This document shows, one piece after another, positions 12,217-48,470 of a DNA stretch of 64,000 bases. This DNA comes from Physcomitrium patens (taxonomy: Eukaryota > Streptophyta > Bryopsida > Funariales > Funariaceae). The translations under genes and the position numbers were made by a program. Every line of letters starts with the position of its first letter. Position 1 is the stretch's first letter. The notes beneath the pieces were generated by a model that was not told where the DNA came from, did no database searches, and saw nothing but the letters and a program-made list of their open reading frames with translations. The DNA is taken from contig NC_037254.1 of assembly GCF_000002425.4 (NCBI RefSeq), positions 1,312,976 through 1,376,975 of the forward strand, in the 5' to 3' direction.

Positions 12217-12259
12217 TATGCTGTTAGGGACATAGTCCTTAGACCTTTCTAGAGACAAA

Positions 12260-12279
12260 TTTCTAGAACCTTCTAGAAA
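12260..12279 (+). promoter_or_regulatory. Perfect four-unit heat-shock element in 5' LTR
   Basis: TTCTAGAACCTTCTAGAA is four alternating TTC/GAA units at exact 5-bp spacing, the binding site of heat-shock factor trimers. It lies 39 bp into the LTR and about 265 bp upstream of the TATA box. More GAATATTC units follow near 12315 and 12329. The 3' LTR retains the same site at 18324-18341. Function as a heat promoter is inferred from sequence. Confidence 0.75.
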
Positions 12280-12525
12280 GAAGTCTCTAGAAACTTCCAA
12301 AAGATTCCTTGAATATTCTCTTAGAATATTCTTTAAAGATTCTCTAAAGATTCTTTGAAGATTCCCTAAAGATTCCCTTAGAAGGCTCTAGAATATTCTA
12401 AGAATCTTCTAGTAGATTCTAGGAAGTTACTTGAGAAGCTTCCTAGCTCTTGAGTAGTTGCTCGAGAAGCTTCATAGTTCTTGGGAAGTTTCTTGATGCG
12501 CTTCCTTAGAACCATAGGCCAGTAG

Positions 12526-12568
12526 TATATATAGGAATCGAGGCTGAAGAGTTCTTCAATCTCGACAA
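12526..12568 (+). promoter_or_regulatory. TATA box and predicted transcript start of element C
   Basis: TATATATA (12526-12533) lies 32 nt before the 11-mer at 12558-12568, which pairs with the primer site at 12698-12708. The start is deduced from that pairing and the usual TATA spacing. The region 12539-12564 is also a 12-bp near-palindrome with a 2-bp spacer. Confidence 0.6.
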
Positions 12569-12697
12569 CACATCTCTTGAAGCTCTAGCTCAATTCTCTT
12601 GGCGTTGCTCTTGTACTCATCTGATAATCTAGTTCTTGTCATTTCTTCTTGATCTTCTTGTTTAGATTTCTTCTTTGTATTTTTGGTCCGTGACAGT

Positions 12698-12708
12698 TTG
12701 TCGAGACT
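12698..12708 (+). promoter_or_regulatory. Self-complementary primer site of element C
   Basis: TTGTCGAGACT begins 2 nt after the LTR. It is the exact complement of AGTCTCGACAA, the LTR start-region consensus; the 5' LTR has AATCTCGACAA and the 3' LTR AGTCTCGGCAA, each one transition away. No TGG-type tRNA site is present. Confidence 0.65.
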
Positions 12709-12719
12709 ACCTTTATCTT

Positions 12720-13092
12720 AATATCAGAGCTGAATCTTTCTTGTTTGAGAGCGGATTACCCTTCTTCTTGAAGGTATTCTAGCGCTTTAGGGGTTGCGGA
12801 TTACCTTCCTCTAAACTGATATTTTCTCAATCACAATATCAAAGCTTAGTTCTTTGAGGCAGAGAGTGGACTACCCCTTTCCTTGGAGATACTTGAGCGT
12901 TCTAAGGGTTGCGGATTACCCTCTCTTGGACTGATATTAATTCCTTCTTTTTGTTAAGTATAGCTAGTAAAAAAGACTGTTAACATCGATTTCAGAGCTT
13001 TGCCTTCTTGATAGAGTGCGGATTACCCCTCTTCTCGAAAGCATTGAGGCATTTTTAGAGGTTGCGGATTACCCTCCTCTAAAACTGAAATC
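12720..13092 (+). repeat. Three tandem leader units with pairing ends (element C)
   Basis: Units at 12720-12823, 12835-12938 and 12988-13092 are each 104-105 nt. Each begins (A)ATATCAG-like and ends CTGATATT-like, so its ends can pair, and each holds two GGATTACC-type motifs (one reads GGACTACC) about 40-50 nt apart. The third unit has GATTTCAG with CTGAAATC, changed on both sides so that pairing is kept. Units end about 120 nt before the gag start. Packaging or translation control is possible but unproven. Confidence 0.75.
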
Positions 13093-13212
13093 ATTTAGTA
13101 TTATTTTTTCTTTTCTCCGAGTAGGTTTTAGTGACAGTAGTGCTACAATTTTCTCCAAGAGACTTAGCAATTTCTTCTTCTCTCAAAATTTTAATCCATC
13201 TATTCTCTAAAT

Positions 13213-18284: not shown

Positions 18285-18758
18285 TGTTAGGGACATAGTC
18301 CTTAGACCTTTCTAGAGACAAGTTTCTAGAACCTTCTAGAAAGAAGTCTCTAGAAACTTCCAGAAGGTTCCTTGAATATTCTCTTAGAATATTCTTCAAA
18401 GATTTCCTAAAGATTCTTTAAAGATTCCCTAAAGATTTCTTTAGAAGGCTCTAGAAGATTCTTAGAATATTCTAGTAGATTCTAGGAAGTTACTTGAGAA
18501 GCTTTCTAGCTCTTGGGTAGTTGCTCGAGAAGCTTCATAGTTCTTGGGAAGCTTCTTGATGCGCTTCCTTAGAACCATAGGCTAGTAGTATATATAGGAG
18601 TCGAGGCTGAAGAGTTCTTCAGTCTCGGCAACACATCTCTTGAAGCTCTAGCTCAATTCTCTTGGCGTTGCTCTTGTACTCATCTGATAATCTAGTTCTT
18701 GTCATTTCTTCTTGAACTTCTTGTTTAGATTTCTTGTTTGTATTTTTGGTCCGTGACA
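18285..18758 (+). repeat. 3' LTR of element C
   Basis: Same length as the 5' LTR (474 bp) and same ends (TGTTAGGG, GTCCGTGACA). It keeps the perfect heat-shock element at 18324-18341. Followed directly by the second TATGC. Confidence 0.95.
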
Positions 18759-26033: not shown

Positions 26034-26586
26034 TGTCACGGCCATAATCATATAAGCTAATAATTACATATAGAAATAGGTAGAAGTAAGTAAAAGTAGA
26101 TAAAAGTAAGTTAATTGTATAATATTTAATATAGAAGCTTCTTAGAAACTTCCTAGATGCTGCTTTAACTTCATAGGTGTCTTTAATTGACTTTTTGGAT
26201 TAGAAACGTGGTCAACAAGTTGGCCATGTGCCACACATGTTGTTAGCTTGAAGATCAAGCTAACTATGTGGCCCACACGTAGAAAAACTTGCCTTGTAAG
26301 TCAAGGCATGTGTCCTACAAAGTCAACACATATTGGAGGTCCTATAGAACGTCGCCACGTAGCCCCTAGTTAGATAGTATATATAGAGACAAGAGTGAAG
26401 GCTTCTTCACTCTTGTCAACTCCTTTCTTGCTTCTAGTCTAGTTTCAAGGGTCTCTAGTTTTCTTGTATTTTGGCAATAGCCATTCCAGTTTCTTTCTTA
26501 ATATACATATTTCTATTTTATCCTATTTCTTTTTCGAGAAAAGTCTCACTTACTCTTTAGCTTTCATCGAGTTCTTGTCCTTGACA
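26034..26586 (+). repeat. 5' LTR of element G
   Basis: TGTCACGGCC ... GTCCTTGACA, 553 bp. Related in sequence to LTRs of E, D and the right-hand copies, but not to LTRs of C. Confidence 0.96.
26378..26419 (+). promoter_or_regulatory. TATA box, start-site palindrome and predicted transcript start of element G
   Basis: TATATATA (26378-26385) lies 31 nt before ACTCTTGTCAA (26409-26419), the exact complement of the primer site at 26589-26599. A perfect 13-bp inverted repeat (26388-26400 and 26405-26417, 4-bp spacer) straddles the start. The start itself is predicted from the pairing and TATA spacing. Confidence 0.65.
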
Positions 26587-26588
26587 GA

Positions 26589-26599
26589 TTGACAAGAGT
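26589..26599 (+). promoter_or_regulatory. Self-complementary primer site of element G
   Basis: TTGACAAGAGT starts 2 nt after the LTR, the same spacing as in C, E, D and the LTR at 47950. It pairs over 11 of 11 nt with the predicted transcript 5' end. Tf1/sushi elements prime minus-strand DNA from an 11-nt self-primer in this way. Confidence 0.7.
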
Positions 26600-26606
26600 A
26601 CACTTA

Positions 26607-26714
26607 CAATATCAGAGCTTTGTCTTTTCTTGATTAAGAGTGGATTACCCCTTTTTCTTGATAAGACATAAGCGCATTAGAAGTTGCGGATTACCCTCTT
26701 TTAAACTGATATTG
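26607..26714 (+). repeat. Leader hairpin unit of element G
   Basis: A single unit of the type found three times in C: 9-nt arms CAATATCAG and CTGATATTG pair perfectly, and GGATTACCC occurs twice inside (about 26643 and 26688). It lies 85 nt upstream of the gag ATG. Confidence 0.75.
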
Positions 26715-26798
26715 TTCTTAGTATTTTCTTTGTTATCAATTCCTCTCTTCTATTTGTTTTGAGCGTTATTAGACATCTTCTCTTTTCTAAGTGCTACT

Positions 26799-27806
26799 AT
26801 GGCAGAGCTTGTTGAAATGAAGAGTACAATGGCACAGATGCAAGAACAATTGAGGGAGTTAATGCTTGCGATGCATCAACTCAATTTACCACCACAAGGA
26901 GCAACAAGAATGGTAGGAAGTGAAGATATAGAGATGATTGGGGCTGCTTCAACATCTGCACCAAACCATGTCCCTTCTCCCAGAATGGAACACCCTTCGA
27001 GTGTTAGAGAACCGAGAGTTGCCTTGCCCGAGAAGTTTGATGGTACCAGATCCAAGTTTCGAGGATTCATCAATCAGGTCCAACTAGTGATTGAACTTCA
27101 ACCCCAGAGCTATCCAACTCCAGGGTCACAAGTTAGATTCATTGGTACACTTCTTTCAGATTCAGCATTGTCATGGTTTTCATCTTTTCTTGAACGACGA
27201 GATCCAATATTGGATAATCTGGAGGCTTTTTTGGCGGAGTTTCGATCCATGTTTGGAAAACATGATGCAATTCGTGTTGCAACCAACAAGATCCGTATTT
27301 TGCGACAAGGCAATCGATCAGTAACATTATATGCTTCGCAATTTCGACAACTTGCAACTGATATCAAGTGGGATGATGCCGCACTTGTGAGTCAATTTCT
27401 CTACGGATTACAATATGAGGTAAAGAAATTGATGCTTAATTTACCTGATCCTCAAACATTGAGTCAAGCAATTGACTTTGCTGTGAAGTGCGACAATCGA
27501 CTTTTTGAATTTCGATCCGAGAGTCGCACATGTGGGCCTCAACGTTACTACAATTCAATGGCAACACCGACGTCTCCTCAACACATACCTTCAGAAGTAG
27601 AGGATATGCAAATTGATGCGGTACGTTTCAAACCTCTTACTGAGCAAGAAAAGTCTCGTCGTCGACAAGAAGGATTGTGCTTATATTGTGGAGAACCTAA
27701 GCACACTGCTCAACATTGTCCAAAGAAGCGACGTAACTACAAGATGAGGAGTACGGCTGTCAAAGAAGACAGTATGTCAGAAAACGAGTACGTCCAGCTA
27801 CAATAG
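26799..27806 (+). CDS. gag: Element G gag, intact
   Basis: Structural capsid/nucleocapsid protein, 335 aa, starting at ATG 26799 (MAELVEMKS); E starts the same way. An N-terminal Met/Gln/Leu-rich region (1-30) looks like a coiled coil. The capsid part runs about 77-240 (EKFDGTRSKFRGF; ALSWFSSFLE). The zinc knuckle C294-x2-C297-x4-H302-x4-C307 is intact. It ends TAG 27806; pol is read in the -1 frame from upstream of this stop. Confidence 0.93.
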   Translation: MAELVEMKSTMAQMQEQLRELMLAMHQLNLPPQGATRMVGSEDIEMIGAASTSAPNHVPSPRMEHPSSVREPRVALPEKFDGTRSKFRGFINQVQLVIELQPQSYPTPGSQVRFIGTLLSDSALSWFSSFLERRDPILDNLEAFLAEFRSMFGKHDAIRVATNKIRILRQGNRSVTLYASQFRQLATDIKWDDAALVSQFLYGLQYEVKKLMLNLPDPQTLSQAIDFAVKCDNRLFEFRSESRTCGPQRYYNSMATPTSPQHIPSEVEDMQIDAVRFKPLTEQEKSRRRQEGLCLYCGEPKHTAQHCPKKRRNYKMRSTAVKEDSMSENEYVQLQ

Positions 27807-27811
27807 GGACC

Positions 27812-30800
27812 GTGCGGCTGGAATCTTGTACAACTTCTAATGAAGGTCCTATCCTCTCCTCAGAACCATCTCCTTGTTTTATAATAGATGTGCGTTTAGG
27901 ACCTAATAATTACAAAGCCTCTGCCTTGATAGATTCAGGAGCCTCAGCTTGTTTTTTAGATGAAGAATTTGCTAGATGTCATAGAATATCATTAATACAA
28001 AAAACTAAACCTATACACGTAGAAGTCATAGATGGTCGTCCGTTGTCTTCTGGAGATGTAACTCACGAAACACTTCCTGTAGATGTAGTAATAAATGGTC
28101 ATAGTAGTTGCGTAATTTTTAATATAATTAGATCTCCCTCTAATCCAATAATTTTAGGCTTATCATGGTTAGAAAAGTATAATCCTCGAATAGATTGGAT
28201 TTCTCGTAAACTTGATTTTCCTCGGAGCATTAGTAACAGTTCTATTAATCAAGTAAAAAACCATGAGTCTAGTATAGTAAAACCCGCACTTATAGGTGCA
28301 AAAGCATTTATACATGCAGCAAAAGAAGGATCAACTTTTGCTATTTATGCTGCACCTATTCCTGAAAGCGTAAAGACTTCAAGTGGCATTCCAAGTCAAT
28401 ATCAAGATTATCAAGACGTTTTTGAGAAAAAGAATGCAGATATTCTTCCTGAGCATCGCCCATACGATTGTTCAATCGATCTCAAGGAAGGAACTCAGCC
28501 ACCATTTGGACCAATTTACAGTTTATCGCAAGATGAGTTGGCTAAACTCAAGACGTATATTGACGAGAATTTAGCGAAGAATTTCATACGCCATTCAAAA
28601 TCTCCAGCAGGAGCTCCAATTTTATTCGTAAAGAAAAAAGATGGATCTTTACGAATGTGTGTTGACTATCGAGGACTCAACAAGATCACAATCAAGAACA
28701 GGTATCCATTACCTTTGATATCAGGACTCCTTGACCAGTTAAATCAAGCTAAGATCTATACAAAAATAGATCTAAGAGGAGCATATAATCTAGTACGGAT
28801 CAAAGAAGGAGATGAATGGAAGACTGCGTTTCGAACCAGGTACGGACACTTTGAATACAATGTCATGCCTTTTGGACTCACGAATGCACCAGCTGCTTTT
28901 CAACATCTCATGAATGATGTATTTCGTGAATTCTTAGACAATTTTGTCGTTTGCTACCTAGACGATATCCTGATTTATTCTAAGAATGTTGAAGAACATG
29001 AAATACATGTTCGTCAAGTATTACAAAAACTTAGAGATGCAGGATTGTACGCCAAGATAGAAAAGTGTGTATTTCACACTACTCAAGTTGACTTTTTAGG
29101 ATACATCATTTCAAATGATGGTCTTATGATGGATTCTAAGAAAGTCCAAACAATCATGGATTGGAAGATTCCAAAGACTGTAAGAGATGTCCAATGTTTC
29201 TTGGGATTTGCGAATTACTATCGGATCTTCATCAAAGACTTCTCACGAGTTGCAGCTCCACTTACACGCTTGACAAGTAAAGATAAATTCCAATGGAATC
29301 AAGAAGCGGAAGCAGCATTTGAAGCCTTGAAGACATCGTTTGTCTCTGCACCAGTCTTATATCGTGTTGACTTTTCCAAGGTATTTTTTATGGAAACAGA
29401 CGCATCGGATTTTGCCTTGGGTGCAGTTTTATCACAAATGGGAACAGATGACAAACTTCATCCGATAGCTTTTCATTCAAGAAAATTCTCAGCAGCCGAG
29501 ATCAATTATGAGATCCACGATAAAGAACTTCTTGCAATCGTGGATTCTTTTCAAGAATGGCGTCATTATCTAGAAGGTGCTTCTAGTCCAGTCACTGTGT
29601 ATACAGATCACAAGAACCTCGAGTATTTCATGTCAGCACGCGTGTTGAATCGTCGTCAAGCTCGTTAGAGTATGTCTTTGTCAAGATTCGACTTCATTAT
29701 CACTTATCGGCCAGGAAAACAACAAGGTTTGTCCGATGCCCTGTCTAGACGTTCTTATTTTGCACCAAAAGAAGGAGATGCAGCTTTTGAGCAACAAAGA
29801 ACGGTCCTCTTGAAACCGGAGCAATTTCATCTCCGAGCAGTGAAATCAACACTGACTGTTGATTCAACTTTTTTCAAGCAAATCCAGTCCAGTATGTCCT
29901 CAGACCCTCTTGTTCATGATATCGAGAATAATTCTTCCAAGTCTCATGATTCTTCTAAGTTCGAGTTCAAGAATAATCTATTATATTTTGAAGGACGCCT
30001 ATATGTTCCAGAAGGAAAAGCACGTTTGCGTGTTCTTCAAGCACGTCATGACTTTCCAGCAGCAGGTCACTTTGGATATAATAAGACTCTGGAACTCATA
30101 TCAAGAGATTTTTGGTGGCCACAAATGTGGAAGTCAGTCAAAGACTTTGTACAATCATGTGATATTTGTTCAAGATCAAAAATTCCTCGACATCGACCTT
30201 ACGGACTTCTTCAGCCATTACCTATACCAGAACAACCATGGTCTTCTGTTTCTATGGATTTCATCACAGATCTTCCAAACTCAAGATCTTATGATTCTAT
30301 ATTTGTGATAGTAGATCGTTTCACCAAGATGGCACATTTTATGCCATGTACAAAATCTATCACAGGTGAAGAAACAGCTAAGCTTTTCATTGATAATATC
30401 TATCGCTATCATGGATTACCTAAAGATATCATATCGGATAGGGGAACTCAATTTGTGTCGAGATTCTGGAGGACTCTTTTCAAGATTTTAAAAGTGGACA
30501 TAAAGCTATCTTCAGCTTTCCATCCTCAAACTGATGGACAAACAGAGCGCGTAAACCAAGTCTTGGAACAGTATTTAAGGTGTACCATCAACTACCAACA
30601 AGATGATTGGACAATCCTTCTGCCATTGGCAGAGTTTGCTTATAATAATATAGTACATTCTTCCACGCAACAAACACCTTTCTTTGCCAATTATGGCTAT
30701 CATCCACGACTTGATACTTTTGATTTTTCAAAAGTTGATAATCTTGCAGCAGAAGACATGGCAAATCGGTTGTCAGAGTTACATGCAATAATGAAGGTGC

Positions 30801-31300
30801 AGTTGAAGAAAGCTCAAGAACGACAAAAGATAAATGCAGATGTATATCGTAAAGAGCATCCACAACTCAACGTGGGTGATAAGGTATGGCTACTTCGTCG
30901 CAATATCAAGACCACTCGACCTTGTGACAAATTGGACTATCGTAGGCTTGGCCCCTTTTCTGTTTCTGAACAGATCAACCCAGTTGCATATCGGTTACAT
31001 CTACCGGAGTCAATGAAGATCCATCCTGTATTCCACGTGTCTCTTCTTGAACCATATAAGACAGTGGATATAGAAGGAAGAAGACAAATGCCACCGCCTC
31101 CTATAGAAGTAGATAATAATGAAGAATTTGAGGTGGAAGAGATATTAGACTCAAGGCAGCGCCGAAATAAGCTGGAATATCTTGTTCATTGGCGCGGATA
31201 TGATATTAGTGAGCGCACATGGGAGCCATCCAGGAATCTAGCAAATGCATCAGCTAAAGTCAAAGTTTTTCATCAACGACATCCATCAAAACCAAGATGA
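27812..31300 (+). pseudogene. pol: Element G pol: protease, RT, RNase H, integrase, chromodomain (single stop)
   Basis: About 1162 codons in one frame. Protease D41-S-G; RT with [22 protein letters not shown] and YLDD 382-385; RNase H with acidic residues D530, E572 and D599. Integrase follows: H2C2 (HDFPAAGH ... CDIC), core MDFITDLP, DRGTQF and QTDGQTERV, and GPF module. A chromodomain closes the protein (EFEVEEILDSRQ to HQRH), which could target heterochromatin. The one defect is TAG at 29666-29668 in QAR*SMSLSRF, where C has Trp (TGG), a single G-to-A change. 27812 is the first start-like codon (GTG); the frame is open further upstream, overlapping gag. Confidence 0.93.
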
Positions 31301-31858: not shown

Positions 31859-32411
31859 TGTCACGGCCATAATCATATAAGCTAATAATTACATATAGAA
31901 ATAGGTAGAAGTAAGTAAAAGTAGATAAAAGTAAGTTAATTGTATAATATTTAATATAGAAGCTTCCTAGAAACTTCCTAGACGCTGCTTTAACTTCATA
32001 GGTGTCTTTAATTGACTTTTTGGATTAGAAACGTGGTCAACAAGTTGGCCATGTGCCACACATGTTGTTAGCTTGAAGATCAAGCTAACTATGTGGCCCA
32101 CACGTAGGAAAACTTGCCTTGTAAGTCAAGGCATGTGTCCTACAAAGTCAACACATATTGGAGGTCCTATAGAACGTCGCCACATAGCCCCTAGTTAGAT
32201 AGTATATATAGAGACAAGAGTGAAGGCTTCTTCACTCTTGTCAACTCCTTTCTTGCTTCTAGTCTAGTTTCAAGGGTCTCTAGTTTTCTTGTATTTTGGC
32301 AATAGCCATTCCAATTTCTTTCTTAATATACATATTTCTATTTTGTCCTATTTCTTTTTCGAGAAAAGTCTCACTTACTCTTTAGCTTTCATCGAGTTCT
32401 TGTCCTTGACA
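31859..32411 (+). repeat. 3' LTR of element G
   Basis: 553 bp, nearly identical to 26034-26586, followed by the second CCTCA. Confidence 0.96.
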
Positions 32412-32575: not shown

Positions 32576-33132
32576 TGAAGAATAAAAACATGATAAAGAC
32601 AAATAAACAAGTGAGACTTCTCTCATAGAAAGATGACAAAACAGAAATAACTTTATGTATATATTAAGAAAGAAACTGGAATGGCTAATGTCAAAAGCCA
32701 AGAAAACTAGAGACACTTGAAATTAGACTCGAAGCAAGAAAAGAGTTGACAAGAGTGAAGAAGACTTCACTCTTGTCTCTATATATACTATCTAACTAGG
32801 AGCTATGTGGCAATGTTCTATATGACCTCCAATATGTGTTGACTTTGTAGGACACATGCCTTGACTTACAAGATAAGTTTTTCTACGTGTGGCCTACATA
32901 TTTAGCTTGGTCTTCAAGCTAATAACATGTGTGGCACATGGCCAACTTTTTGACTACGTTTTTAATCCCAAAAAGTCAATTAAAGACACCTATAAATTCA
33001 AAGTAGCATCTATGAAGCTTTTAGAAAGCTTCCATATCAAATACTATAGAATTAACTTATTTTTATCTACTTTTACTCACTTCTACTTATTTATACATGT
33101 AATTATTGGCTTACATGCATATGTCCGTGACA
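32576..33132 (-). repeat. 3' LTR of element E
   Basis: Starts TGTGAAGAATAAAAAC and ends GTCCGTGACA. The preceding CTTTA is the target duplication; a TGTCAC 12 bp earlier belongs to element D and is not the LTR start. Confidence 0.88.
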
Positions 33133-37709: not shown

Positions 37710-37795
37710 GATAACACTTAGAAAAGAGAAGATGTCTAATATCGCTCAAGACAAATAGAAAATTGGACTTGAGAACAAAGAAAATACTAAAGACA

Positions 37796-37905
37796 ATATC
37801 AATTTAAAAGAGGGTAATCCACAACTTCTAATATGCTTGTGTCTTATCAAAAAAAATGGATAATCCATTCTTAATTAAGATTAGACAAAGCTCTTATATT
37901 ATAGG
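37796..37905 (-). repeat. Leader unit of element E
   Basis: One copy of the leader unit of G on the minus strand, with GGATTATCC/GGATTACCC-type motifs at both internal places. The pairing ends have drifted. Confidence 0.6.
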
Positions 37906-37908
37906 TGT

Positions 37909-37919
37909 ACTCTTGTCAA
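37909..37919 (-). promoter_or_regulatory. Self-complementary primer site of element E
   Basis: On the minus strand TTGACAAGAGT, 2 nt from the LTR. The 5' LTR start region (38096-38106) reads ACTCTTATCAA, one transition from perfect complement; the 3' LTR keeps the perfect form. The TATA box ends at 38137, 31 nt from the predicted start. Confidence 0.65.
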
Positions 37920-37921
37920 TT

Positions 37922-38482
37922 TGTCAAAGACAAGAATATGATAAAGTCAAATAAACAAGTGAGACTTCTCTCATAGAAAGATGAAAAAATAGAAATAACT
38001 TGATATATATATATTAAGAAAGAAATTGGAATGGCTATTGCCAAAAGCCAAGAAAACTAGAGACCCTTGAAACTAGACTGGAAGCAAGAAAGGAGTTGAT
38101 AAGAGTGAAGAAGGCTTCATTCTTGTCTCTATATATACTATCTAAGTAGGGGCTACATGGCGACGTTCTATAGGACCTCCAATATGTGTTGACTTTGTAG
38201 GATACATGCCTTGACTTACAAGGCAAGTTTTTCTACGTGTGGCCTATATAGTTAACTTGGTCTTCAAGCTAAGAACATGTGTGGCATATGGCGAACTTGT
38301 TGACCATATTTCTAATCCCAAAAAGTTAATTAAAGACACATATAAAGTCAAAGTAGCATCTATAAAGCTTCTAGAAAGCTTTCATATTAAATACTATAGA
38401 ATTAACTTATTTTTATCTATTTTTACTTACTTCTACCTATTTATATATGTAATAATTGGCTTACATGCATATGTCCATGATA
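37922..38482 (-). repeat. 5' LTR of element E
   Basis: TGTCAAAGACAAG ... GTCCATGATA, homologous to 32576-33132 and followed by CTTTA. Confidence 0.9.
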
Positions 38483-42325: not shown

Positions 42326-43726
42326 ATGGACGTGAAGACCATGGCTCAAGCTGCAGGGAAATTGGTTTCTCCTGCAGCTGATAGCGTGAACAGCAATAGG
42401 TTTCCGAAGGTTGAGAGTAAGGCAGTTGGAAACGTGTTATCTAGTTCGTTTCGTGGTCGTAGGTTGGTGACTAGTATTCCCGTGAAATTTGTGGAGACGC
42501 CCCAGCATTTGCAGAGCAGACGAGGTGTGATCGCTTACTCTGCTCCTGCCACGGCCAAGAAACCTGTGAATGAGCCCGCGAAGACTGCGAATAGCGTTGC
42601 AGAGAGTCAGAAGGACGGGCAATGCTTCGGCGTGTTCTGCGTAACCTATGATTTGAATGAGAGCGAGAGACCCAAGACATGGAAGAAGATGGTGCGCGTC
42701 GCCGTATCGGGAGCCGCCGGCATGATTTCCAACCACTTGCTGTTCAAGCTTGCCTCTGGGGAAGTATTCGGCCAAGACCAGCCCATTGCGCTGAACCTCC
42801 TGGGGTCGGAGAGGTCTAGGGGAGCTCTGGAGGGAGTGGCTATGGAGTTGGAGGATTCTCTGTTTCCTTTGTTGAGGGAAGTGAACATTGGAATTGAAGC
42901 CGAGGAAGTCTTCGTCGACGCAGATTGGGCGCTACTCATTGGCGCCAAACCTCGGGGCCCAGGCATGGAGCGAGCAGATTTGCTCGACATCAATGGGCAA
43001 ATCTTCGCGGAGCAAGGGAAGGCTTTGAACAAAGTGGCGAGTCCAGACGTGAAGGTTCTGGTGGTGGGTAACCCGTGCAACACGAATGCGCTCATTGCGC
43101 TGAAGAACGCGCCCCGTCTCAACCCTCGGAATTTCCACGCCCTCACCAGGTTGGACGAGAACCGAGCCAAGTGCCAGTTAGCTCTCAAGGCTGGTGTTTT
43201 CTACGACCACGTTTCCAACGTGACCATCTGGGGCAATCACTCTACCACCCAAGTCCCCGACTTCCTGAACGCTAGAATACTGGGAGCGAGCGCGGTGGAC
43301 GTGATCCAGGACGAGAATTGGCTCAAAGAAGAGTTCACTCCGCGAGTGCAGACGCGAGGTGGGGCGCTTATCCAGAAATGGGGCCGATCCTCCGCCGCCT
43401 CCACGGCCGTGTCGATAGCAGACGCCATCAAGTCGCTCGTCACCCCGACTCCAGAGGGGGACTGGTTCTCATCCGGCGTGTACACGAACGGCAACCCTTA
43501 CGGCATCGCTGAGGATCTTATCTTCAGCATGCCGTGCCGCTCCACTGGGGACGGAAACTGGGAACTGGTCACCGACTGCTATGTGGACGACTACTTACGC
43601 GACCGCATCAGGAAGAGCGAGGATGAGCTGATTGCGGAGAAGAAGTGTGTTTCGCATCTCATCGGCGCCCCGAATGGTGTCTGTGAGCTTCCCGACGGTG
43701 ACACTATGTTGCCCGGTGAGCAGTAA
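42326..43726 (+). CDS. Chloroplast NADP-dependent malate dehydrogenase, intronless
   Basis: 466 aa, reducing oxaloacetate to malate with NADPH in the chloroplast stroma (malate valve). Residues 1 to about 85, Ser/Ala/Val/Arg-rich, look like a transit peptide. The nucleotide fold starts GAAGMI (129-134), with NADP-type LLGSERS (158-164). Substrate and catalytic parts are [21 protein letters not shown] and GNHSTTQ with His305. Both redox pairs are present: C100/C105 (CFGVFC) and C441/C453 before the tail ending MLPGEQ, so thioredoxin control is expected. Length is usual for the plant enzyme. The frame is uninterrupted, whereas angiosperm genes have many introns. GC content is far above the surroundings. 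The ATG chosen gives a normal transit peptide. Confidence 0.95.
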
Positions 43727-47949: not shown

Positions 47950-48470
47950 TATCATAGACATATATATTTATTTAAATAATAAGTATCTAGTAGAATATAA
48001 ATATAGGTAGATTTAATATTATCTCATGACAAAGCTTCTTAAAAGCTTCATAGTTGTATATTTGATTTTATACATATTTATAGTTAATTGGCAAGTTAAA
48101 AACTTGGCCTACAAGTTAGCCATGTCTCGCACATGTGGATAGCTTATGGTAGAAGCTAACAATGTAGTGTACATATATGAAACTTACCTTACAAGTTAAG
48201 ATATGTGTCTTATAAATTAGTCACTTGTTAGAGGTTATATAGAACGTTGTTAGATAGTATATATGGAAGCAAGAATGAAGCCTTCTTTACAAAATACTCT
48301 TTTCAATATATTTTTTATCCTTAGTCTTATTTGACGACTTTTTAGTCTTCTCATTTTTAGCAATAACCATTCTAGTATAATATTATACCATCTTTGAATG
48401 ATTTTTTAGTCTTTTTGAATGACATAAGAGTGTATTGAACTTTTAGTCTTTTAAATTCATATCCTTGACA
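47950..48470 (+). repeat. LTR of decayed chromoviral element H
   Basis: Starts TATCATAGACATA (from TGTCACGGACATA) and ends ATCCTTGACA. It is followed after 2 nt by a perfect primer site TTGACAAGAGT (48473-48483), as in G and E. The plus-strand TATA region near 48255 is followed by the family's 'gcaagaatgaag' block. Confidence 0.8.

What the first reader, a model, noticed from the sequence alone, without database searches (positions are those of the whole stretch)
26378..26599. Tf1/sushi-type self-priming in plant chromoviral elements, supported by covariation
Seen: in G the 11-mer ACTCTTGTCAA lies 31 nt after TATATATA, and its exact complement TTGACAAGAGT sits 2 nt after the LTR. In C the pair is AGTCTCGACAA (consensus of both LTRs) with TTGTCGAGACT, at the same spacings (32 nt and 2 nt). 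The two sequences differ between families, but pairing is kept. E, D and the LTR at 47950 keep the primer site at the same place. Known: Tf1 and sushi elements use the first 11 nt of their own RNA as primer. Athila-type A and B in the same window instead have a TGG tRNA-type site. Inference: these elements self-prime.
Basis: partly seen in the sequence, partly recalled or inferred. Interest (0 to 1): 0.88.

Follow-up and report, generated by a model that had tools for sequence, protein, structure and literature searches.

The report
Self-primed moss retrotransposons with masking hairpin
Jumping genes in this moss-like genome, and relatives that are probably from a water fern, appear to start copying themselves with the first 11 letters of their own RNA instead of a host tRNA, and next to that primer they carry a hairpin that may hide every other copy of it.

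Summary
In element G, ACTCTTGTCAA starts 31 nt after TATATATA and its exact complement lies 2 nt after the LTR. Element C has AGTCTCGACAA/TTGTCGAGACT at the same places, exact in 31 of 39 other genomic copies, one mismatch in 8. No TGG lies in the 30 nt behind either LTR. Three of 11 positions differ between families, all compensated. Self-priming of moss and club-moss chromoviruses (Tcn1 clade) was already predicted in print (Neumann 2019, PMC6317226), so that part is not new.

Apparently new: (1) the end of U3 carries an inverted copy of the primer, forming a 12-13 bp, 4-nt-loop hairpin that holds primer nt 1-9; U3 arm, primer and PBS co-vary between families. (2) The same anatomy, with a third sequence (AAGGCGAACAA/TTGTTCGCCTT), occurs in contaminant contigs of an Azolla-symbiont assembly, probably fern; an earlier PCR survey thought ferns more likely lack the Tcn1 clade. 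(3) Folding predicts a switch: RNA starting at the inferred site pairs primer with PBS; RNA carrying U3 mostly or wholly masks it.

Proposed, inferred role: only the RNA 5' end can prime. Start sites, priming and hairpin function are untested experimentally.

The parts
26034..26586 (+). 5' LTR of element G (3' LTR 31859-32411; TSD CCTCA)
   Evidence: 98.9% LTR identity; TG..CA ends and 5-bp duplication read
26378..26385 (+). TATA box of G
   Evidence: 1 difference in 250 aligned bases for 26378-26387, 25 of 28 loci
26388..26400 (+). U3 arm: inverted copy of CTTC plus primer nt 1-9
   Evidence: 13-bp stem, -21.3 kcal/mol; differences 0.062 per base against 0.127 in the U3 body and 0.310 in the loop
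26401..26404 (+). 4-nt loop of the U3/R hairpin
26405..26417 (+). right arm of the hairpin (CTTC + primer nt 1-9)
26409..26419 (+). inferred start of RNA/R and self-primer ACTCTTGTCAA
   Evidence: differences 0.022 per base
26589..26599 (+). primer binding site TTGACAAGAGT, 2 nt after LTR
26608..26722 (+). leader stem module with two GGATTACC motifs
26799..27806 (+). gag ORF of G
   Evidence: Pfam Retrotrans_gag
27812..29668 (+). pol piece of G: protease, RT, RNase H
29672..31300 (+). pol piece of G: integrase, SH3_Tf2-1, chromodomain; separated from the previous piece by one in-frame stop
32203..32244 (+). TATA, U3/R hairpin and second primer copy in the 3' LTR of G
12222..12695 (+). 5' LTR of element C (3' LTR 18285-18758; TSD TATGC)
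   Evidence: 95.4% identity; ends read
12537..12566 (+). U3/R hairpin of C (left arm 12537-12549, loop 12550-12553, right arm 12554-12566)
12558..12568 (+). self-primer of C, 5' LTR copy AATCTCGACAA (1 mismatch to PBS)
12698..12708 (+). PBS of C TTGTCGAGACT
12720..13100 (+). three leader stem modules of C, with GGATTACC motifs
18600..18629 (+). U3/R hairpin in the 3' LTR of C
37909..37919 (-). PBS TTGACAAGAGT of the minus-strand element E
38096..38106 (-). primer position in the 5' LTR of E (ACTCTTATCAA, 1 change)
32746..32756 (-). primer copy in the 3' LTR of E (ACTCTTGTCAA)

Best explanation
G and C are Ty3/gypsy chromoviruses, most likely of the Tcn1 clade inside the Tf1/sushi group. Their RNA starts about 31-32 nt after the first T of the TATA box. 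Its first 11 nt fold back onto a complementary PBS 2 nt behind the LTR; cleavage after nt 11 frees the primer (this step recalled from Tf1 work) and reverse transcription starts. Because the PBS is complementary to the element's own R, every other copy of R is a competitor: the R at the RNA 3' end, read-through RNA, and plus-strand strong-stop DNA. The last bases of U3 pair with primer nt 1-9 in a local 12-13 bp hairpin and hide the primer wherever U3 is attached, so only an RNA beginning at the start site primes. Shown: positions, complementarity, covariation of three parts, predicted folding. Inferred: start site, priming, masking role (I give the masking role about 0.5, self-priming about 0.9).
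For: Exact 11-nt pairs in G, in C-type L037 and in 31 of 39 other C copies. A third pair AAGGCGAACAA/TTGTTCGCCTT in 4 contaminant loci, primer 32 nt after TATAAATA, PBS 2 nt behind the LTR end (these 4 were found by searching for exact complements, so their exactness is ascertained). U3/R hairpin in all three families with 4-nt loop, 9 of 11 primer nt in the stem and AA outside it. A sequence-blind TATA+hairpin scan of the 54 loci gave 6 hits: 5 of this family and one ATGT repeat; Markov control 0.0 per set (run after the hairpin had been seen). The fern stem pair outside the primer is G-C, G-U or A-U in different loci. C copies: 3 double compensated changes against 0.67 on shuffling, 89 of 5000 shuffles. 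Predicted switch: RNA from the inferred start gives P(primer:PBS) 0.93 (G), 0.93 (L037), 0.61 (window C, one mismatch), 0.92-0.95 (4 fern loci); with the whole U3 arm it is 0.00 (G, L037, window C, L081, L111) or 0.21-0.31 (L082, L083). As a separate strand, a 3'-end piece takes the PBS (0.76-0.95) without U3 and not (0.00) with it, in 3 of 3 cases tried. Tree. Few differences in primer and PBS (0.022, 0.018 per base) against 0.065 in the rest of R-U5 (25 of 28 loci; both sites in the query).
Against: No transcript ends or cDNA. The extra duplexes of the Tf1 'pretzel' structure were not found: flank pairing no better than shuffles. Within the G family the arms show no covariation beyond shuffling (641 paired cells against 641.6; both-side paired changes 1 against 2.05). 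The C-family double changes fall partly on sites that also change singly, so hot spots can contribute. 8 of 39 C copies and 9 of 28 G loci have mismatches between primer and PBS, read as decay. Possible self-primed relatives L085 and L101 have no U3 arm, so the mask is not universal. In L082 and L083 masking is predicted to be incomplete. Under DNA parameters G's primer:PBS pairing without U3 is only about 0.5, so the DNA side of the conflict is weaker in G than in L037 (0.94). Folding ignores proteins.
Confidence: 0.8

Rival explanations
1. Self-priming is right, but the U3 arm is a by-product: reverse transcriptase copies one arm of a near-palindrome from the other, so the hairpin stays perfect without selection.
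For: Double changes in nearly identical C copies are what such copying gives.
Against: Arms co-vary between families but also show G-U pairs kept by many copies (C pair 7; G subfamilies with GGCAAGAG; fern pair 11), which arm-to-arm copying would turn into perfect pairs. The loop changes fast while the arms do not.
Confidence: 0.25
2. The hairpin acts at the DNA or promoter level (start-site choice, transcription factor or cruciform) or as a 3'-end RNA signal, and matches the primer only because it overlaps the start site.
For: It lies exactly between TATA and the inferred start.
Against: Its sequence differs between families while pairing is kept, and the pairing stops just before the last two primer bases in all three.
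Confidence: 0.2
3. Reverse transcription is primed by a tRNA, half-tRNA or other host RNA and the complementarity is coincidental or structural.
For: TATCAGAGC, 9 nt of the iMet site recalled for plants and seen in L117, starts 24 nt behind the LTR in G and 27 nt in C.
Against: No TGG in the 30 nt behind the LTR of G or C; TGGTATCAGAG is absent from the window and from 200 kb of moss samples; matches to TATCAGAGC with up to one mismatch are at chance level in the window (14 against 13.8); three families have three own-RNA-matched sites. Half-tRNA sites were not tested.
Confidence: 0.05

Closest known systems
Tcn1 clade of plant chromoviruses (Novikova 2010 PMC2864245; Neumann 2019 PMC6317226)
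   Same: Moss hosts, chromodomain with aromatic cage, self-priming predicted for the majority of members by Neumann (passages).
   Different: The passages seen describe no U3/R hairpin. Novikova found neither a tRNA site nor self-priming in Selaginella SM-Tcn1 and, after a PCR survey that included Salvinia natans, thought ferns more likely lack the clade; here a relative occurs in an Azolla-symbiont assembly.
Tf1/Tf2 and other fission-yeast elements, Tj1 (PMC10085805, PMC4600332)
   Different: Tf1's two further duplexes were not found here; a U3 arm is not mentioned in the passages seen. Tf1 sequences were not compared.
Vertebrate sushi-like elements
   Same: Integrase groups near an Anolis relative.
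   Different: Their LTRs were not available.
GalEa Copia elements with a Conserved Hairpin Site (PMC5445492)
   Same: Hairpin near the place of reverse transcription start (passages).
   Different: Copia; hairpin directly behind the 5' LTR; its authors found no complementary U5 sequence.
TAR-lineage Copia elements of plants, predicted self-primed (PMC6317226)
   Same: Self-priming predicted in plants.
   Different: Other superfamily.

Membership tests
Tf1/sushi group | Ty3/gypsy pol with RT-RNase H-integrase order and chromodomain | tested here: met
   Pfam RVT_1, RNase H, rve, SH3_Tf2-1, Chromo
Tf1/sushi group | PBS complementary to the RNA 5' end | tested here: met
   the RNA 5' end itself is inferred from the TATA distance
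Tf1/sushi group | Phylogenetic grouping with Tf1/sushi, apart from tRNA-primed plant chromoviruses | tested here: met
   FastTree of 57 integrase pieces, midpoint root: moss and fern elements lie with Anolis and Absidia inside a split of support 0.978; all 8 tRNA-site loci lie outside it. Only two named references; Tf1 itself not included; inner nodes partly unsupported.
Tf1/sushi group | Three-duplex 'pretzel' leader structure (described for Tf1 and several others) | tested here: inconclusive
   central duplex predicted; flank duplexes not better than shuffles in a simple test
Tf1/sushi group | RNase H cleavage after nt 11 and primer extension | not testable with these tools
   needs biochemistry
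Tcn1 clade | Chromodomain with aromatic cage | tested here: met
   F-W-Y in G, Y-W-Y in C and in L079-L082, L111 at the positions recalled for HP1
Tcn1 clade | Clade membership against named Tcn1 sequences | not tested
   no named Tcn1 sequence at hand
tRNA-primed plant chromoviruses (Tekay, Reina, CRM, Galadriel) | TGG-type tRNA site behind the LTR | tested here: not met

The most novel reading that the evidence does not exclude
Self-primed land-plant chromoviruses carry a start-site check: a U3-encoded complement of the self-primer masks every primer copy that is not at the RNA 5' end, in RNA and in plus-strand DNA, keeping priming and second-strand transfer in order. It is shared by moss and fern lineages with three-way covariation of U3 arm, primer and PBS.
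Probability: 0.45. Interest if true: 0.75.

Novelty: new variant of a known kind. Interest (0 to 1): 0.62.

Why it matters
An element that primes on itself has a built-in conflict: its RNA and DNA intermediates carry further copies of the primer. A local, co-evolving hairpin would be a simple answer and makes the question testable in a model moss. It also gives a sequence signature (TATA, hairpin, primer, LTR end, PBS) that can recognise such elements without tRNA assumptions, and extends the group to a probable fern host.

Tried and rejected
Pretzel side duplexes in the leader: not supported. iMet PBS relic (TATCAGAGC behind the PBS): left open; absent from the four fern loci, and at chance level in the window with up to one mismatch. 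Rfam: no match in the window at gathering thresholds. Relatives in viral contigs: none confirmed in two scans. Within-family covariation in G: none. L085 and L101 as further self-primed cases: L085 has an 11-nt complement behind CCTGACAGT without TATA at -31; L101 a 9-nt complement 44 nt after TATA; neither has a U3 arm; both uncertain. L079 also holds a decayed LTR copy near its 5' end, not counted. The other 9-13-nt complements listed were not followed one by one; those looked at (L089, L092, L100, L103, L120) lacked the TATA-hairpin anatomy.

Literature searches behind the statement that no U3/R mask was found in print: (one search failed). Only listings and passages were seen; the classic Tf1/sushi papers (Levin, Lin, Butler) were not opened.

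Full report
Setting. The window is G000:C2:1312976-1376975 of a 470-Mb genome in 101 contigs. Size and content suggest the moss Physcomitrium patens, where an abundant chromodomain family RLG1 is transcribed (PMC7466625, passages); the species, and any identity of G or C with RLG1, is inference. Element G has LTRs 26034-26586 and 31859-32411 (98.9% identical) and a 5-bp duplication CCTCA; element C has LTRs 12222-12695 and 18285-18758 (95.4%) and TATGC. Gag and pol pieces of G carry RT, RNase H, integrase, SH3_Tf2-1 and chromodomain. One in-frame stop splits G's pol; described only.

The observation. G pairs 11 of 11. C in the window has one change in each LTR, but 31 of 39 other C copies are exact and 8 have one mismatch (the PBS lay in the query, the primer did not). 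The difference between families is three positions, all compensated. A blind scan gives G in the window (Markov controls 0, 0, 1) and one C-type site in 200 kb of unselected moss DNA (controls 0, 1, 5), so exact 11-mers alone are weak evidence and the strength lies in position and recurrence.

The U3 arm. Between TATA and the inferred start lies a hairpin: GACAAGAGTGAAG-GCTT-CTTCACTCTTGTC in G, GTCGAGGCTGAAG-AGTT-CTTCAGTCTCGAC in C copies. The right arm contains primer nt 1-9, the last AA stays outside. Across 25 of 28 G loci (L019, L020, L024 dropped for low alignment score) differences per base are 0.127 in U3, 0.062 in the arm, 0.310 in the loop, 0.022 in the primer, 0.018 in the PBS and 0.065 in the rest of R-U5. 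Within G the arms do not co-vary beyond shuffling. In the 39 C copies, 3 double compensated changes stand against 0.67 expected (89 of 5000 shuffles); in the overlapping set (38 LTR copies, with older ones but without L133-L141) 4 against 0.69 (3 of 2000). Mutation hot spots and arm-to-arm copying can contribute.

Another host. A scan of bacterial and archaeal assemblies with an integrase alignment returned 54 loci encoding relatives, which I take as eukaryotic contamination. Fifteen of the 54 lie in an 'uncultured Trichormus' MAG of run ERR2144891, that is the Azolla symbiont (the link recalled), so these contigs are probably Azolla DNA; an Azolla metagenome study exists (PMC5901025) but its text does not name that run. 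Four loci (L081, L082, L083, L111) have primer AAGGCGAACAA 32 nt after TATAAATA and PBS TTGTTCGCCTT 2 nt behind the LTR end; they were found by looking for exact complements. Five (with L079, 3' LTR) have the hairpin: GTTCGCCTTGAT/ATCAAGGCGAAC in L079 and L111, GTTCGCCTTGGT/ATCAAGGCGAAC in L082 and L083, GTTCGCCTTGGT/ACCAAGGCGAAC in L081, so one stem pair outside the primer is A-U, G-U or G-C. The hairpin scan of all 54 loci found these five and one ATGT repeat; Markov controls gave none. Eight of the 54 loci carry the tRNA-type TGGTATCAGAG site; none shows a complement of 9 nt or more of its PBS region upstream or a hairpin above the scan threshold, but two of the eight have no TATA in the upstream stretch examined, so this contrast is partial. 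In the integrase tree of 57 pieces the moss and fern elements form a group (support 0.984, with metagenome and further Trichormus-MAG sequences) near Anolis, three further MAG sequences (L089, L090, L092) and Absidia, where several joining nodes have no support; the 8 tRNA-site loci lie outside the wider split (0.978). Novikova 2010 found no Tcn1-like clones in ferns and thought absence more likely (passages); Neumann 2019 names moss and club-moss hosts and its main text does not contain the word fern.

Mechanism. Leader RNA starting at the inferred site pairs primer with PBS (0.93 G, 0.93 L037, 0.61 window C, 0.92-0.95 fern). With the whole U3 arm present the primer pairs with U3 instead (0.97-1.00 G, 0.79-0.81 L037, 0.72-0.75 window C, 0.67-1.00 fern) and primer:PBS falls to 0.00, or 0.21-0.31 in L082 and L083. 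DNA parameters give the same switch for the plus-strand strong-stop end of L037 (0.94 to 0.00) and a weaker one for G (about 0.5 to 0.00). When a 3'-end piece is offered as a second strand (G, L037, L081), it captures the PBS if it starts at R (0.76-0.95) and not if it carries U3 (0.00); the 5' primer then holds the PBS with 0.63-0.90. Hence the proposal: the U3 arm masks all primer copies except the RNA 5' end. A second point follows from the mechanism (established knowledge of PBS copying, recalled): the PBS of a new copy is templated by the primer itself, so primer/PBS covariation is partly automatic, whereas covariation of the U3 arm is not and needs selection or arm-to-arm copying.

What is known and what is new. 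Self-priming was shown for Tf1, proposed for Tj1 and predicted for the majority of Tcn1 elements of mosses and club-mosses. I found no description of the U3/R hairpin in the searches listed under Tried and rejected, but the classic Tf1 papers were not opened and Tf1/sushi LTRs were not compared. Verdict: observation confirmed, interpretation supported but already published for this clade; the masking hairpin and the probable fern member are the new variant.

Noticed in passing
12720-13100, 26608-26722, 37790-37910 (minus): Leader stem modules (AATATCAG...CTGATATT) holding GGATTACC motifs, one module in G, three in C; GGATTACC occurs 11 times in the window against 1.08 expected, 8 of them in leaders by position. 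Possibly a packaging or dimer signal; absent from the first 330 bases of fern L081.
   Followed up: partly
26610-26618, 12722-12730: TATCAGAGC behind the PBS equals 9 nt of the tRNA site seen in L117 and others; relic or chance.
   Followed up: partly
42326-43726: Uninterrupted 466-aa ORF with lactate/malate dehydrogenase domains and, by eye, a plastid-like N-terminus, amid retrotransposons.
   Followed up: no
L053, L057, L073, L042: C-type copies with both arms of the hairpin changed in a compensating way.
   Followed up: partly
L117, L113: The same Trichormus MAG also holds relatives with a TGGTATCAGAGC tRNA site, so two priming types may share one host.
   Followed up: no
L079-L132: Bacterial and archaeal assemblies hold many contigs that encode chromovirus integrase, probably eukaryotic contamination (54 loci).
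   Followed up: no
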